64,000 nucleotides of DNA from Candidatus Melainabacteria bacterium. Lineage in GTDB: Bacteria > Cyanobacteriota > Vampirovibrionia > Obscuribacterales > Obscuribacteraceae. Every line of letters begins with the position of its first letter. Positions within the stretch are counted from its first letter, which is position 1. Under the pieces are notes generated by a model that saw only the letters and a program-made list of their open reading frames with translations, was not told the origin of the DNA and made no database searches. The stretch spans positions 310,150 to 374,149 of the forward strand of contig RXJR01000009.1 of the NCBI GenBank assembly GCA_003963305.1, given 5' to 3'. This document shows positions 27,965-34,259 of the stretch, piece after piece. Both the position numbers and the translations under genes were made by a program.

Positions 27965-30505
27965 ATGGCTGTCATTTTTTCGCGTGGCGACAAGCTAGAA
28001 AACGGTCACTACACGGTAGTCAAAGAGCTCGGCGTGGGCGGCATGGGTGTTGTCTACCATTGCCGAGACGAGCAACTGATGAGGGATGTGGCTATCAAAA
28101 TGCTGCTGCCCGAGTTGATGACCGATAAGTCAAACGTTGAAATTTTCAGACAGGAAGCCAGGCTTGCCGCGCAATTAGAACATCCCAATATCGTTACGGT
28201 GTACGAAATTGGTGTAGAGGAGCGGCAAAAGAAGCAACACCATTACGTGTCAATGGAATATTTGCCGGGCGGAAACCTCGCCAATCGTGTCGTGAGTGGA
28301 CCTCTAGCTGTCGAGCACTGTCTCAACTGGATGAAGCAATTGGCTTCGGGGCTTACTTTCGCCCATAAGCGCGGGGTGATTCACCAGGACATCAAAGCTG
28401 ACAACATTTTCATAACCACCGAAGGTGATTTGAAGATTGGAGATTTCGGTCTGGCCAGACTTCTTGTTGGTCGGGTTCACTACAACTCGGCCACCAAAGG
28501 CATGGGCACTCCTGCCTACATGTCACCTGAACTGTGCAGGGGAGAGCCTCAGGATCACCGGTCGGATATTTATTCACTGGGAGTTCTTTTCTTCGAAATG
28601 GCCACCGGGCAGTTGCCGTTTCGTGCGGGCGGAATGATCGAGATGGCAACTAAACATTCGTCTGCGCCGATTCCTTCCGCTAAGCGGATCAATCCGCTTA
28701 TCCCCGACATCTTAGACAAAGTAATCCGTCGCATGATGGCTAAAACGCCTGAAGAACGCTATTCAAACATGTCGGAAGTTTTGACCATTCTTGATGACTT
28801 GATTTTTGAATTGCGTGTCGCCAGGTTAGGGCTGGGCAATCGACCTTTGTTGCGTTCAGGACCGGTGCAAGTCGACCCCCTGTTGCAGCAGCAGTTTATT
28901 CAGGCTAAAAGCGCTGAAGTCGAGACAAGTGCCAGTTTGAGCCCGGTCACTGCTCTGGATGGCACGTGGGCGCGCTCGCCTGGCGACGTGGCTCGGTCAG
29001 AGTCTCAAAATTTGAGACTGCCTGAGGTGGCAGAAGTGCGCACCGGTCAGTCGAATCTACCCAGATCCGAGTCGGAAGAGTTGATGGCTCAACTGGAAAG
29101 CAGCGTTGCCGAGCAGGCGCGACTTGAAAAATTGACCGGCAAGCCGCATACGGAGCCGGTTCGTCAGCCTCGTAAACAGACAGATTTTGTTGTATCGCAG
29201 CGAATATCTAAGCAGCCGAACAGCTCCAACATCTCTGCTGCACCCATAGATCAGCGCCGTGTCGACCAGCCGGGAACGAATGCGCCTGTGGTCAATGCTG
29301 CGAAGGAGTCGACTTCAGCCAGCAAGAACACGCATGGACAGCCTGATTTTAATCAACCGTCAGGAAAAACTCCTCTCGCTGCTCCCAGGAGCGGGGCACC
29401 TCCTGTAACACCATCGCAGGCGGCGCCAGTTTCTGCTGGAGCACCACCGACGATACCGTCGGTGACGCAGCCGCGTATTTCCTCGTCTGGGCTCAAGGCT
29501 GTACCGGCTGGATCATTGCGAGCACCGATCGACCAGATCTGGACCTTTAAAACTCGCGGTCCAATTGGCTGGTCTTCGTCTCCGGTCATCGATAAAGACA
29601 ATAGGATTATTTATTGTGCTTCCTCTGACTGTCATGTATATGCGCTCGACGCCAATTCTGGAGAACTAATCTGGAAGTACGATAGCGGCGGTCCAATTTT
29701 GTCGAGCCCGGTGATTAGCGGAGACAGGATATCTGTCTTTAACGCCACCGGTAAAGTTGTCACTTTGTCAGCAAAAACTGGCGCTAAGGCCTGGAGTTTC
29801 TCTTGTGAGGATGAGTTGCTCACCACGGCTGTAAGTTACAAAGATTGTTTGATTGTGCCAACAGCCAAGGGTCGTCTCGTATGTCTGGATCAAGCCAGTG
29901 GCATTATTCGTTGGCAGCAGCAAATGAATGAGCCGATAGTTTCAGCTCCACAACGCCACGCCGATCTTTTGCTTTTTGGCACCAAGAGTGGTTACTTCCA
30001 CGCAGTTTCTGCCGACAATGGCAAAAGCATCTGGACGTTTGAGACTGCGTCGGCAATTGTCGCCAGTCCTGCTGCTTCAGTTGACAGTGTCTATTTCGGA
30101 ACCTCTAACGGAGTCTTTTATGCGCTTGAGGCAGACAACGGCAATTTGATCTGGGAGTATCCAACCGATAAGCCGGTTGTCTCGCGCGCTGTGATTGCTT
30201 TTACTTCGGTGATTTTTGCCAGCCACGATAAATGGCTATACTGCTGCGAGAAGTATGACGGCAGCTTGAAGTGGAAGGGTGCGGTGCGCGGCAAGGTGAT
30301 AGCCAATCTCATTGTCTACAAAGACCTTGTTCTCAGCGCCAGTCATGAAGGATGGCTGCAAGCATTCTCTTCTAAGACTGGAGAAATAAAATGGCAGAAA
30401 GATACCGAGCGCTGCCTTGAATCTGCACCGCTTGTGGTGAATGACAAGCTCTATATGGGCTCTGTTGAAGGTGAACTGGCTGCCTACTCTTTTCATGACG
30501 TTTGA
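27965..30505 (+). CDS. Ser/Thr protein kinase with C-terminal PQQ-type beta-propeller
   Basis: This 846-residue protein has a Hanks-type kinase at residues 13-290: glycine loop GVGGMGVV (22-30), Lys45, Glu64, catalytic loop HQDIKADN (Asp142), DFG (160-162) and GTPAYMSPE. The usual HRD Arg is replaced by Gln, making it a non-RD kinase. A Pro/Ser/Gln-rich linker (about 300-525) has no membrane segment. The C-terminal 320 residues form repeated PQQ-like blades (YALDANSGELIWKYDSG, VSADNGKSIWTFET, ALEADNGNLIWEYPT), a probable seven- or eight-blade propeller for ligand or protein binding. The target is unknown. No phosphatase is adjacent. Confidence 0.93.
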   Translation: MAVIFSRGDKLENGHYTVVKELGVGGMGVVYHCRDEQLMRDVAIKMLLPELMTDKSNVEIFRQEARLAAQLEHPNIVTVYEIGVEERQKKQHHYVSMEYLPGGNLANRVVSGPLAVEHCLNWMKQLASGLTFAHKRGVIHQDIKADNIFITTEGDLKIGDFGLARLLVGRVHYNSATKGMGTPAYMSPELCRGEPQDHRSDIYSLGVLFFEMATGQLPFRAGGMIEMATKHSSAPIPSAKRINPLIPDILDKVIRRMMAKTPEERYSNMSEVLTILDDLIFELRVARLGLGNRPLLRSGPVQVDPLLQQQFIQAKSAEVETSASLSPVTALDGTWARSPGDVARSESQNLRLPEVAEVRTGQSNLPRSESEELMAQLESSVAEQARLEKLTGKPHTEPVRQPRKQTDFVVSQRISKQPNSSNISAAPIDQRRVDQPGTNAPVVNAAKESTSASKNTHGQPDFNQPSGKTPLAAPRSGAPPVTPSQAAPVSAGAPPTIPSVTQPRISSSGLKAVPAGSLRAPIDQIWTFKTRGPIGWSSSPVIDKDNRIIYCASSDCHVYALDANSGELIWKYDSGGPILSSPVISGDRISVFNATGKVVTLSAKTGAKAWSFSCEDELLTTAVSYKDCLIVPTAKGRLVCLDQASGIIRWQQQMNEPIVSAPQRHADLLLFGTKSGYFHAVSADNGKSIWTFETASAIVASPAASVDSVYFGTSNGVFYALEADNGNLIWEYPTDKPVVSRAVIAFTSVIFASHDKWLYCCEKYDGSLKWKGAVRGKVIANLIVYKDLVLSASHEGWLQAFSSKTGEIKWQKDTERCLESAPLVVNDKLYMGSVEGELAAYSFHDV

Positions 30506-30552
30506 TTCTTGCGAGAACCTTGTATTTAACCAGCTAATTGATGGGCGTCTCG

Positions 30553-30558
30553 TATAAT
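30553..30558 (+). promoter_or_regulatory. Candidate -10 box before the exported protein gene
   Basis: A perfect TATAAT lies 35 bases before the ATG at 30593, in the short gap after the kinase gene. No good -35 hexamer is at the right spacing, so confidence is limited. Confidence 0.45.
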
Positions 30559-30592
30559 TAGCGGTTCGATTTATTACTAACAAGGAAGAATC

Positions 30593-31168
30593 ATGACAAG
30601 AATCGTTGCTGGGCTCGTATCGCTTGTGACGGCCCTGGTTTGTTGCTCCGCGGCACTAGCTGTTGACTATCCTAAAAAGGCATTTGACGCCTCTTATGAC
30701 CTGACCGCCCCGACCGGGAACAACACGATGCGCATGTGTTCTGATGGCAAGGGGCGCATGAGAACTGAGACCGTTACCCCAGGCGCCAGAGTCGTTACCA
30801 TCTCTGATTATCCGAACCTTGTCTCCATTACTATTCTTGACGCTCAGAAAATGGCCATCAAGAGCAAACTAACAGCCGACAGTTATCAGGGGTCCGAGAG
30901 TGCCGATATGAAAAAGAAGGGCGCCAAGGACATCGGTAATAAAGTGGTAGCTGGACATCCATGCCACGGCTGGGAATATAACCAACCTGCAACCAAAACC
31001 GTCACTCAAGTCTGGATAGGTAATGACATCGATTGGTTGGTGCAATCAAATACTCAACTTCCAAACGGCAAAAGTGTAATGACACTGAAGACTTTTGCAG
31101 CGAAAGCTCCGGATGCGTCTTTGTTTTCGATGACGGTGCCGGCCGGCTATAAAGTGAACGGACCTTAG
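30593..31168 (+). CDS. Exported protein of unknown function
   Basis: This 191-residue protein has a clear signal peptide (AGLVSLVTALVCCSAALA). The mature part is beta-rich, with repeated short strands (MRMCSDGKGRMRTE, RVVTISDYPNLVSITILD, VTQVWIGNDIDWLV). The layout resembles periplasmic DUF4412/LolA-like proteins, but I cannot name a family with confidence. AAGGA precedes the ATG. It stands between the kinase gene and the YbaB-like pair. Confidence 0.78.
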   Translation: MTRIVAGLVSLVTALVCCSAALAVDYPKKAFDASYDLTAPTGNNTMRMCSDGKGRMRTETVTPGARVVTISDYPNLVSITILDAQKMAIKSKLTADSYQGSESADMKKKGAKDIGNKVVAGHPCHGWEYNQPATKTVTQVWIGNDIDWLVQSNTQLPNGKSVMTLKTFAAKAPDASLFSMTVPAGYKVNGP

Positions 31169-31237: not shown

Positions 31238-32197
31238 ATGGGAAACTTCTACTCAAACATAACTCTCAGTACTGGTGAACGGGATAAAGTCATCAACTTT
31301 CTGATAGAGCAGAAACGGCATACGTTCGTCTATCCCATCGATGACTTTATCTGCGTTTTTCCAAAACACGACTCAGTCCTATTCGAATTGGCTGAACAGT
31401 TATCGGCGCTTCTAAAGTGTCCTGCTTTCGCAGTCATGATTCATGACGATGACTTGCTCATTTACAAGCTGTTTGATTCGGGCAAACTGCTTGATCAGTA
31501 CAATTCCTGCCCTGGTTATTTTTCGGGCGTTGATCAACCAAGCTCGGGCGGAGACCCTGAAAAGCTCTGCCTGGTTTATTCTGCACCTGATGAGGTGGAA
31601 GCTCTAGAAGAGATCTTGCGGAAGAATTATACTTTCGAATCCAATCGTCATGATGCAATTATTGCAAAACTGAACTTGCCATATTGCACCGTAGGTAGTG
31701 GCTTCGGGTATCTGGAGAGAGATGAGACTCCAGACGATCTTGTCGTTGCCGATCTGATCGAAACTGCACCAAATGATCAAGCCGGTGACACTGATCCTGA
31801 ATCCGGCAGTAGCTCGTCGAAGGGTCGAGGTTTCGTCGACCTGGACGAGGGATCTCATTTGACCAAAAATGCTGTGGCAAGCATGCTTAATGATCCCGAA
31901 CTGCTCCAGCGTGCCTGGGCCAAAGCAAAAGCTGGTGCTGATGATTATGTGAAAGCAATGATGGAAACCGAGGTGAAGGGATCTTCGGGTGGTGGTGCCG
32001 TTGTTATTACCAGTAAAGGTAACTTGCAATTTACCGGCGTCAAACTCTCTCCTGAAGCAATTAACGCTGAAGATGTCGGTATGCTGGAAGACCTGGTGCT
32101 GTGTGCGCTCAACGATGTAGCTCAGCAAACGCGAGTAAAGATGGAAGCAACTAAGAAGAGTGTTTTGAACCAGCAATTGGGTCAGCTCGGGCTCTGA
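31238..32197 (+). CDS. Unknown N-terminal domain fused to a YbaB/EbfC-like domain
   Basis: This 319-residue protein starts at an ATG after GGGGAAG. Residues about 222-319 resemble the nucleoid-associated YbaB/EbfC family: an amphipathic helix, then VKGSSGGGAVVITSKGN and MLEDLVLCALNDVAQQTR at the positions of the family's 'veGeaGgGaVkVt.nG' and 'mLEDLi.aAvNdA' motifs. Residues 1-100 form a separate alpha/beta domain (TFVYPIDDFICVF, FAVMIHDDDLLIYKLFDSG, DQYNSCPGYF) that I do not recognise as a named family. A second, short YbaB-like gene follows 19 bases downstream. YbaB proteins bind DNA; the fusion suggests a sensor or partner-binding module. Confidence 0.75.
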   Translation: MGNFYSNITLSTGERDKVINFLIEQKRHTFVYPIDDFICVFPKHDSVLFELAEQLSALLKCPAFAVMIHDDDLLIYKLFDSGKLLDQYNSCPGYFSGVDQPSSGGDPEKLCLVYSAPDEVEALEEILRKNYTFESNRHDAIIAKLNLPYCTVGSGFGYLERDETPDDLVVADLIETAPNDQAGDTDPESGSSSSKGRGFVDLDEGSHLTKNAVASMLNDPELLQRAWAKAKAGADDYVKAMMETEVKGSSGGGAVVITSKGNLQFTGVKLSPEAINAEDVGMLEDLVLCALNDVAQQTRVKMEATKKSVLNQQLGQLGL

Positions 32198-32216
32198 TAA
32201 CCATGCAGCAATTGAC

Positions 32217-32516
32217 ATGACTAATTTCTCCAATGAAAATCCGTTGCCCCGGATGCATCAGCTTCTGCTCAAGATCAGACGTGAACTTGATGCTATCAAG
32301 GTTGAGGGGGTGTCCGGAGACGGGGCGGTTCGCATAGTCTTAAGCGGCGGCACCAGATTTGAATCAGTAAAGATCGATCCGTCGCTAGTTTCCGAGGCAA
32401 ACAAAGAGCAACTCGAGCAACTTCTGCTCGAGGCAACTCAAGATGCGGTTAAACAGGTGCTTCTTGAAGTAAAACTGAAGACTGATGCTTTGCGGCAAGA
32501 ATTCGGATTTCAGTGA
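32217..32516 (+). CDS. YbaB/EbfC-like protein
   Basis: This 99-residue protein has an N-terminal helix (MHQLLLKIRRELDAI), the strand motif VEGVSGDGAVRIVLSGG and SVKIDPSLV, and a C-terminal helix (EQLEQLLLEATQDAVKQVL), in the order and size of YbaB/EbfC nucleoid-associated proteins. Canonical YbaB genes sit by dnaX and recR; this one instead follows a YbaB fusion gene and is likely co-transcribed with it. The two may form a heterodimer, since the family is dimeric (inference). Confidence 0.7.
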   Translation: MTNFSNENPLPRMHQLLLKIRRELDAIKVEGVSGDGAVRIVLSGGTRFESVKIDPSLVSEANKEQLEQLLLEATQDAVKQVLLEVKLKTDALRQEFGFQ

Positions 32517-32606: not shown

Positions 32607-33038
32607 ATGGATACAAGCGGTGTGCACACCTGGTTAGTTCTCTGGAAGGCTTATGATGCCTGCCACAGTCAGGCCGAGCGTAGTATCGAAACTTTCGGCA
32701 TGTGTTACTCTGACTTCGCTGTGATGGAGTGTCTTCTCCATCGCGGTTCGCAAACTATAAACGCAATTGGAACGAAGGTGTCGCTCACCAGTGGTTCGAT
32801 TACCACAGCTGTTGATCGTCTCGAGCGTCGCGGTTTTGTCGAGCGTTCCAGCTCAGACGAAGATCGTCGAGCCAAGGTGGTGAGTTTGACTGAAGAAGGG
32901 ACGAGAGTGATACGGGAAGCGTTTGAAAAGCATCAAGTTGATATGGAGCAAATGGCAGCTCCACTCAGCGTTGCTGAGCGTCAGACTCTTCTCAAGCTCC
33001 TGAAAAAACTAGGTAAGTCGGCAGCTTCTTCCGACTGA
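32607..33038 (+). CDS. MarR-family transcriptional regulator
   Basis: This 143-residue winged-helix protein has INAIGTKVSLTSGSITTAVDRLERRGF for the recognition region and SSSDEDRRAKVVSLTEEG for the wing, the standard MarR signature. It should bind DNA as a dimer and respond to small phenolic or oxidant signals. It stands before ppk2 on the same strand, 87 bases apart; control of ppk2 is possible but not shown. No clean operator palindrome was found near either gene. Confidence 0.9.
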   Translation: MDTSGVHTWLVLWKAYDACHSQAERSIETFGMCYSDFAVMECLLHRGSQTINAIGTKVSLTSGSITTAVDRLERRGFVERSSSDEDRRAKVVSLTEEGTRVIREAFEKHQVDMEQMAAPLSVAERQTLLKLLKKLGKSAASSD

Positions 33039-33125: not shown

Positions 33126-34259
33126 ATGGCTAAATCTACTAACAATGGTCGAGGTCGTGCACCATCCCTTCGTGCGGCTCAGACAAGACGGACAGGCACG
33201 GTGGGTATCGCGCGCCGGAGAAGAAACTCGAAAGCGGTTACCGATGCTGTTATTGAGCAGACCAGTGCAGACCTGATGTCTGATAATGCAGGTGCTGCAA
33301 ATGGCAAAGCCAGCTCGCAGAGGAGCTCTGTCAAATCAACGGCTGTCGAAAAGAACGGACGGAACGGTATCAGGGACAACGACGCCGAGATTCAGTCTGA
33401 AAAGCCCGAGACGGGAAAAATTGACGCTGATGATCTGGCTCGGGTGAACACCCAGCGTGGTCTGCTCAAATTGTTGAAATCCAAGAACATTAAACTCAAG
33501 TCTGTTCTCAATGAGATGAATTATGAAGAAGAGCTGGTGCTCTTACAGATTGAGTTAGTCAAATTGCAGCGGTGGGCACAGAAGAACGGCAAGCGCATTG
33601 CAATTTTGTTTGAGGGTAGAGATGCTGCCGGAAAAGGCGGTGCTATTCGCAGATTTACCGAGCATCTGAATCCGCGTTCCATGCGGGTTGTAGCACTACC
33701 TAAGCCAAGTGAAGTGGAAACGGGGCAATGGTACTTCCAGCGCTACAGTGTGCAACTGCCAAGTGCAGGCGAGATTGTTTTCTTCGACCGCAGCTGGTAC
33801 AACCGAGCTGTAGTCGAGCCTGTGAACGGATTTTGTACTGAAGAAGAGTACGATCGGTTTATGCAGCAAGTGACTGAATATGAGCACATGCTCTACGAAG
33901 ACGGCATTACGATTATAAAATTCTGGTTCTCTATAACGCGAGAAGAGCAGATGGCCAGATTTACATCGCGTCGTGTCAATCCGCTCAAGCAATGGAAGCT
34001 GAGCCCGATTGATGAGAAAGCGCAGGATCTCTGGCAAAAGTACAGCCATTATAAAGAGCTGATGTTCAGTCGTACGCATACGTCATTCAGCCCCTGGATC
34101 ATTGTGCAAGCTAACAACAAGAAAAAAGCCAGACTGGAAAGTATTCGCTATGTGTTGAGCACTTTAGATTATTCTGGAAAAGATACTCCCAAAACCCAGC
34201 TCTTTCCTGATCCCAACATTGTTCAGCGCTATCATCGAAACAGCGCCAACCAGGATTGA
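33126..34259 (+). CDS. ppk2: Polyphosphate kinase 2 family protein
   Basis: This 377-residue protein has a PPK2 domain from about residue 105. It shows Walker A in FEGRDAAGKGG (164-172), Walker B IVFFDRSWYNR (Asp221), the lid region around FTSRRVNPLKQWKLSP, and the family end VLSTLDYSGKD. PPK2 enzymes transfer phosphate between polyphosphate and nucleotides, usually making GTP/ATP. The first 100 residues are a disordered, strongly basic extension (RGRAPSLRAAQTRR, ARRRRNSK) not found in standard PPK2, perhaps for polyphosphate or nucleic-acid contact. This fits a polyphosphate-storing organism. Confidence 0.93.
   Translation: MAKSTNNGRGRAPSLRAAQTRRTGTVGIARRRRNSKAVTDAVIEQTSADLMSDNAGAANGKASSQRSSVKSTAVEKNGRNGIRDNDAEIQSEKPETGKIDADDLARVNTQRGLLKLLKSKNIKLKSVLNEMNYEEELVLLQIELVKLQRWAQKNGKRIAILFEGRDAAGKGGAIRRFTEHLNPRSMRVVALPKPSEVETGQWYFQRYSVQLPSAGEIVFFDRSWYNRAVVEPVNGFCTEEEYDRFMQQVTEYEHMLYEDGITIIKFWFSITREEQMARFTSRRVNPLKQWKLSPIDEKAQDLWQKYSHYKELMFSRTHTSFSPWIIVQANNKKKARLESIRYVLSTLDYSGKDTPKTQLFPDPNIVQRYHRNSANQD

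What the first reader, a model, noticed from the sequence alone, without database searches (positions are those of the whole stretch)
31238..32516. YbaB/EbfC-like domain fused to an unrecognised domain, next to a second YbaB-like gene
The 319-residue protein has a YbaB-type C-terminal part (residues ~222-319) and an unrelated N-terminal alpha/beta domain (1-100). A second short YbaB-like gene follows 19 bases later. YbaB is normally a short, single-domain DNA-binding protein near dnaX/recR. A paired arrangement with a fused accessory domain suggests a specialised heteromeric chromatin or DNA-regulation unit.
Basis: partly seen in the sequence, partly recalled or inferred. Interest (0 to 1): 0.62.

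Follow-up and report, generated by a model that had tools for sequence, protein, structure and literature searches.

The report
Fused YbaB protein with YbaB partner
A small group of uncultured non-photosynthetic relatives of cyanobacteria carries, besides its normal YbaB gene, two extra, strongly diverged YbaB genes side by side, one of them fused to an undescribed domain; they probably form a mixed pair with a specialised job, but which job, DNA binding or protein handling, is not shown.

Summary
The 319-aa protein (31238-32197) ends in a YbaB/EbfC domain (residues 229-310, PF02575, E 2e-15), and the 99-aa protein 19 bases downstream is a second one (E 3e-17). Both are extra copies: the same genome has an ordinary YbaB next to recR. 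In 292 genomes of the phylum no other has more than one YbaB, and in 50 genomes of the family only four have the fused gene, always with the partner gene directly behind it. Each of the two genes forms its own fully supported clade with the same branching order, on long branches. Flanking genes are not conserved with the pair in the fourth genome. The N-terminal domain is larger than stated (about 1-166), folds confidently as a ferredoxin-like alpha/beta domain (pLDDT 92), has no Pfam family and no significant match among solved structures, and occurs elsewhere alone or fused to DUF1877 or ankyrin repeats. A single-chain model of a relative's two YbaB domains gives two YbaB folds with pTM 0.68, compatible with a mixed dimer. 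A DNA-related role is only inherited from the family name; other YbaB-fold proteins act as chaperones or bind ribosomes. New variant of a known kind; function open.

The parts
31238..31735 (+). N-terminal domain of the fused protein, residues 1-166 (MGNFYSN ... HDDD ... DxYNSCPGYF ... GGD); predicted ferredoxin-like alpha/beta fold, no Pfam family
   Evidence: no Pfam, PHROGs or PADLOC match; 10-sequence alignment; AlphaFold2 mean pLDDT 91.8, pTM 0.88; no PDB or viral fold match at E<=1e-3
31736..31885 (+). variable linker of the fused protein, residues 167-216
   Evidence: poorly conserved and gapped region between the two conserved blocks in the four-genome alignment
31886..32194 (+). YbaB/EbfC domain of the fused protein, residues 217-319 (PF02575 match at residues 229-310)
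   Evidence: PF02575 57.0 bits; the homologous part of locus L046 shows the helix-strand-strand-strand-helix topology
31238..32197 (+). coding sequence of the fused 319-aa protein
   Evidence: ORF; orthologues of 313-321 aa in G037, G036, G029
32217..32516 (+). coding sequence of the 99-aa YbaB-like partner
   Evidence: ORF; PF02575 63.2 bits, TIGR00103 53.5 bits; matches solved YbaB structures 1j8b and 1pug

Best explanation
The two genes encode a dedicated pair of diverged YbaB paralogues that assemble into an asymmetric YbaB dimer (one fused chain, one short chain) in place of, or beside, the usual symmetrical homodimer. The helical 'tweezer' arms of the dimer grip the target, most likely DNA as in studied YbaB/EbfC proteins. 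The fused chain adds, on a flexible linker, a ferredoxin-like domain with invariant His/Asp/Tyr residues that probably binds a ligand or another protein and so recruits or modulates the dimer. Shown: YbaB domains, fusion, adjacency, parallel divergence, extra copies beside the normal YbaB. Inferred: heterodimer, DNA target, sensing or recruiting role of the N-domain.
For: PF02575 in both; normal YbaB next to recR elsewhere in the genome; three copies only in G000, G036, G037, G029 of 50 family genomes and only in G000 of 292 phylum genomes; pair adjacent in 4 of 4 with small gaps (19, 21, 10 and about 71 bases); fused and partner clades each 100% supported with the same branching order; model of the two YbaB domains of L046 in one chain: cores pLDDT about 88-95, pTM 0.68, with fold matches to 1j8b, 1ybx, 1pug; YbaB/EbfC proteins bind DNA as dimers through the helical arms (PMC9610160).
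Against: No direct evidence of hetero- over homodimer: only two of five AlphaFold models were good, the single-chain device forces the two domains together, and coordinates or PAE could not be inspected. Net charges of the arms are not raised relative to the normal YbaB, so DNA binding gains no support from them. The fused domain fails the TIGR00103 equivalog cut-off. The N-domain exists in ten family genomes, six of them without any fused YbaB, so its function does not depend on YbaB.
Confidence: 0.42

Rival explanations
1. The pair is a YbaB-fold chaperone or ribosome-side factor: the mixed dimer holds a protein client or a nascent chain, and the N-domain gives client specificity. DNA is not the target.
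For: YbaB-like EspL and EspH stabilise specific ESX-1 substrates (PMC6319747; PMC6107294); the chloroplast YbaB homologue STIC2 binds ribosome-nascent chain complexes and Alb3/Alb4 tails (PMC11480477); kinetoplastid mitoribosomal protein mS60 is detected by the YbaB profile (E 0.0015-0.0021) and a second mitoribosomal chain by fold. Strong divergence from the ordinary paralogue.
Against: No WXG100 protein over the cut-off in the genome, so the ESX version is unlikely; no client gene is conserved next to the pair; upstream secreted proteins differ between genera.
Confidence: 0.25
2. Plain duplication: two extra YbaB copies, each making its own homodimer, with a fused accessory domain of little consequence; adjacency reflects tandem origin only.
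For: A common origin of the two extra YbaB domains (one duplication) is not rejected (p-AU 0.31); both are YbaB-fold.
Against: Pair kept together in 4 of 4 genomes across two genera with different flanks; partners never found apart; both under constraint over deep divergence (dN 0.13-0.38 with dS mostly saturated).
Confidence: 0.2
3. The N-domain is a conflict-system or immunity-like domain and the fused YbaB only serves to dimerise or anchor it; the pair neutralises a toxin or foreign protein.
For: The N-domain is patchy, found alone (Prosthecobacter L050), fused to DUF1877 (L039) and to ankyrin repeats (L052), and next to a DUF4419 gene with a sub-threshold SMI1/KNR4 match (L037).
Against: No PADLOC match, no toxin gene recognised next to the copies examined, sequence is conserved (78-80 and 64-65% identity in the two sister species) rather than fast-evolving.
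Confidence: 0.13

Closest known systems
YbaB/EbfC nucleoid-associated proteins (PF02575, TIGR00103; structures 1j8b, 1pug, 1ybx)
   Same: domain, helix-strand-strand-strand-helix topology, significant profile and fold matches
   Different: extra copies not next to recR; one is 319 aa with an added domain, whereas 99% of reviewed family members are 94-133 aa (PMC9610160); strongly diverged; two different proteins encoded side by side
EspL / EspH, YbaB-like ESX-1 chaperones of mycobacteria
   Same: diverged YbaB-fold paralogues with a specialised role; EspH also carries sequence beyond the YbaB part
   Different: no ESX (WXG100) genes over the cut-off in this genome; different accessory domain
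STIC2, chloroplast YbaB homologue; mS60 of kinetoplastid mitoribosomes
   Same: YbaB fold used outside DNA compaction; mS60 is a longer protein with a YbaB-like part
   Different: no evidence here for ribosome or insertase contact; organellar proteins
YubB/Api92 ferredoxin-like domain proteins
   Same: weak fold resemblance of the N-domain (2ijr rank 4, prob 0.84, E 0.098; phage YubB-like E 0.0098, prob 0.99)
   Different: no sequence similarity; E-values not significant; TM-scores 0.24-0.35

Membership tests
YbaB/EbfC family (PF02575) | profile match above Pfam gathering score | tested here: met
   57.0 and 63.2 bits against 25.5
YbaB/EbfC family (PF02575) | NCBIfam equivalog TIGR00103 above cut-off 49.45 | tested here: inconclusive
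   partner 53.5 bits met; fused 40.7 bits not met
YbaB/EbfC family (PF02575) | alpha1-beta1-beta2-beta3-alpha2 topology | tested here: met
   model of both domains of locus L046 and fold matches to YbaB crystal structures
YbaB/EbfC family (PF02575) | short single-domain protein | tested here: inconclusive
   partner 99 aa met; fused 319 aa not met
YbaB/EbfC family (PF02575) | gene next to dnaX or recR | tested here: not met
   neighbours are kinase, DUF4412, MarR, PPK2 genes; the recR-linked copy is elsewhere
YbaB/EbfC family (PF02575) | homodimer that binds DNA through helical arms | not testable with these tools
   needs biochemistry; arm charges not informative
ESX-associated YbaB-like chaperones (EspL/EspH) | encoded in a type VII (WXG100) locus | tested here: not met
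   no WXG100 protein over the cut-off in the genome
YubB/Api92 ferredoxin-like domain | significant structural or profile match of the N-domain | tested here: not met
   no Pfam match; best fold matches above E 1e-3
known anti-phage defence families | PADLOC profile match | tested here: not met
   none

The most novel reading that the evidence does not exclude
An obligate asymmetric YbaB heterodimer in which one arm carries a ligand- or protein-binding ferredoxin-like domain, i.e. a YbaB-based switch that ties nucleoid (or nascent-chain) binding to a signal; it would be a heteromeric, multi-domain member of a family studied so far as small homodimers.
Probability: 0.33. Interest if true: 0.6.

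Novelty: new variant of a known kind. Interest (0 to 1): 0.42.

Why it matters
YbaB is one of the most widespread bacterial nucleoid proteins, yet its function is unsettled: DNA binding in some species, chaperone or ribosome-linked roles in relatives. A natural fusion with a dedicated partner, beside an intact ordinary copy, offers a genetic handle on what the fold can do, and the N-domain is an undescribed domain family that can be defined from these sequences.

Tried and rejected
ESX-type chaperone: no WXG100 over the cut-off in the genome. Defence or phage origin: no PADLOC or PHROGs match, no relative of the N-domain in viral contigs, only YbaB-domain hits in plasmids. Functional link to the neighbours: MarR lies next to a pirin-like gene (recognised by eye, no profile run) in other genomes, including G029, away from the pair; DUF4412 relatives are common in the family without the pair; PPK2 is not next to the pair in the two sister species. 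Caspase-3 sequence hits of the N-domain (E 0.15 and above) are chance. Charge comparison of the helical arms was not informative. dS is saturated in most comparisons, so dN/dS could not be given for most pairs.

Full report
Setting. The window lies in a 7.48 Mb genome (window = contig C9, 310150-374149) whose named relatives are metagenome bins labelled Candidatus Obscuribacterales, Candidatus Melainabacteria or Cyanobacteria bacterium, i.e. non-photosynthetic relatives of cyanobacteria.

Observation. The fused gene (31238-32197, 319 aa) and the partner gene (32217-32516, 99 aa) are as described, 19 bases apart. PF02575 is found in the fused protein at residues 229-310 (57.0 bits, E 2.2e-15) and in the partner at residues 12-90 (63.2 bits, E 2.6e-17), both far above the cut-off. 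The stricter NCBIfam equivalog TIGR00103 accepts the partner (53.5 against 49.45) but not the fused domain (40.7). The partner matches solved YbaB structures directly (1j8b, 1pug, E about 3e-8). The stated refuter (no significant YbaB match) therefore did not occur. One correction: the N-terminal domain spans about residues 1-166, not 1-100, and is joined by a variable linker.

Extra copies. The same genome has an ordinary 106-aa YbaB directly upstream of recR (L001 1477-1797 and 1993-2589; the recR name is from the sequence, not from a profile run). Of 50 genomes of the family, 43 have a YbaB; only G000, G036, G037 and G029 have three, and in each the two additional ones are the fused gene and the partner (a low-scoring further hit in G000 was below the cut-off). 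Of 292 genomes drawn across the phylum, 284 have YbaB and none except G000 has more than one. The extra pair is thus a rare, lineage-restricted addition.

The pair is the unit. In G037 (SZAS-4), G036 (palsa_1080) and the window's genome the order is kinase with beta-propeller, DUF4412 protein, fused gene, partner, MarR. In G029 the fused gene and partner are again adjacent, but between other genes. The gaps are 19, 21, 10 and about 71 bases. The MarR neighbour sits by a pirin-like gene in other genomes, G029 included, without the pair, so it is probably a bystander.

Descent. In a tree of 49 YbaB domains the four fused domains form one clade (100/99) and the four partners another (100/100), with the same inner branching order (G029, then G036, then G037 with the window) and long stems (0.78 and 1.57 changes per site, against mostly under 0.5 for ordinary copies). 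A single origin of the two extra domains is not rejected (p-AU 0.31); grouping the partners with the genus's own ordinary YbaB is rejected (p-AU 0.011), grouping the fused domains with it is not (0.43). Long branches make these placements uncertain. Protein identity between the window and SZAS-4 is 73% (fused) and 79% (partner), with synonymous sites mostly saturated, so both are kept by selection.

N-terminal domain. No Pfam, PHROGs or PADLOC family. AlphaFold2 with ten sequences gives mean pLDDT 91.8, pTM 0.88, with order strand-helix-strand-strand-helix-strand-strand-strand followed by helices. Foldseek finds nothing at E<=1e-3 in the PDB or in viral models; the best interpretable leads are Api92/YubB-type ferredoxin-like proteins (2ijr, prob 0.84, E 0.098; phage YubB-like proteins, prob up to 0.99, E 0.0098). 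'Ferredoxin-like' is therefore a reading of the element order and of these weak leads. Invariant residues in ten sequences include G2, N7, H69, D70, G82, D86, Y88, S90 and P92. In the model's secondary structure H69/D70 end strand 4 and D86-S90 end strand 6; I infer one functional patch but could not inspect coordinates. The domain is found in 10 of 50 family genomes, in 1 of 339 genomes across the phylum, namely the window's own, and in a Prosthecobacter and another bacterium; it occurs alone, fused to DUF1877, to ankyrin repeats, or to unknown regions. It is thus a portable domain that was joined to YbaB at least once. The collection scan used one short peptide pattern, so more members probably exist.

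Do they form a mixed dimer? In SZAS-4 (L046) the two genes are in one frame, so the fused protein's YbaB part plus the partner could be modelled in one chain. The cores reach block pLDDT 88-95, both show the helix-strand-strand-strand-helix order, and pTM is 0.68; fold search returns YbaB structures. I read the pTM as pointing to a defined arrangement of the two domains, which fits a YbaB dimer, but only two of five models were good and a tether favours contact. This is compatible evidence, not proof.

What it does. YbaB/EbfC proteins form tweezer-shaped homodimers whose helical arms bind DNA in Borrelia, E. coli, Haemophilus, Deinococcus and Caulobacter (PMC9610160). It is not secure: EspL and EspH, also YbaB-like, stabilise secretion substrates, STIC2 binds ribosome-nascent chains, and mS60 is a mitoribosomal protein. 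The arm charges do not decide. I give the DNA-linked heterodimer 0.42, the chaperone or ribosome model 0.25, plain duplication 0.2, and a conflict-system role 0.13.

Novelty. The YbaB part is a known family; the architecture (ferredoxin-like domain plus YbaB, with a dedicated YbaB partner) was not found described in the papers searched, in a library that lacks most subscription journals. I rate it a new variant of a known kind.

Noticed in passing
L035:3055-4215, L057:1495-2034 (same genome), L036, L037, L038, L039, L050, L052: An undescribed portable domain (MG[NS][FS][YF]xN ... HD[DS] ... DxYxSxPxYF ... GG) occurs alone or fused to DUF1877, ankyrin repeats or unknown regions in Obscuribacterales, a Prosthecobacter and another bacterium; it has no Pfam model.
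   Followed up: partly
L048, L054 (Centralia_MAG_505): The record is titled 'Proteobacteria bacterium', but the corresponding genome (G029) is held in the same family as the window's genome, and its genes are closest to Obscuribacterales; the title looks wrong.
   Followed up: partly
L037:2965-4737: A DUF4419 protein with a weak SMI1/KNR4 match lies next to a large paralogue of the N-terminal domain.
   Followed up: no
PDB 7aor/7ane chains an (mS60) and ak: Two different kinetoplastid mitoribosomal proteins resemble YbaB by fold, mS60 also by profile (E 0.0015); possibly a eukaryotic case of two YbaB-fold proteins in one complex.
   Followed up: no
window 27965-31168: Serine/threonine kinase with a C-terminal PQQ-type beta-propeller followed by a DUF4412-like protein with a signal-like start; DUF4412 relatives are found in most genomes of the family, in tandem in some.
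   Followed up: partly
window 33126-34259: PPK2-family polyphosphate kinase with a long N-terminal extension; not next to the YbaB pair in the sister species.
   Followed up: no
window 32607-33038: MarR regulator whose relatives in several other genomes of the family lie next to a pirin-like gene; here it stands by the YbaB pair.
   Followed up: partly
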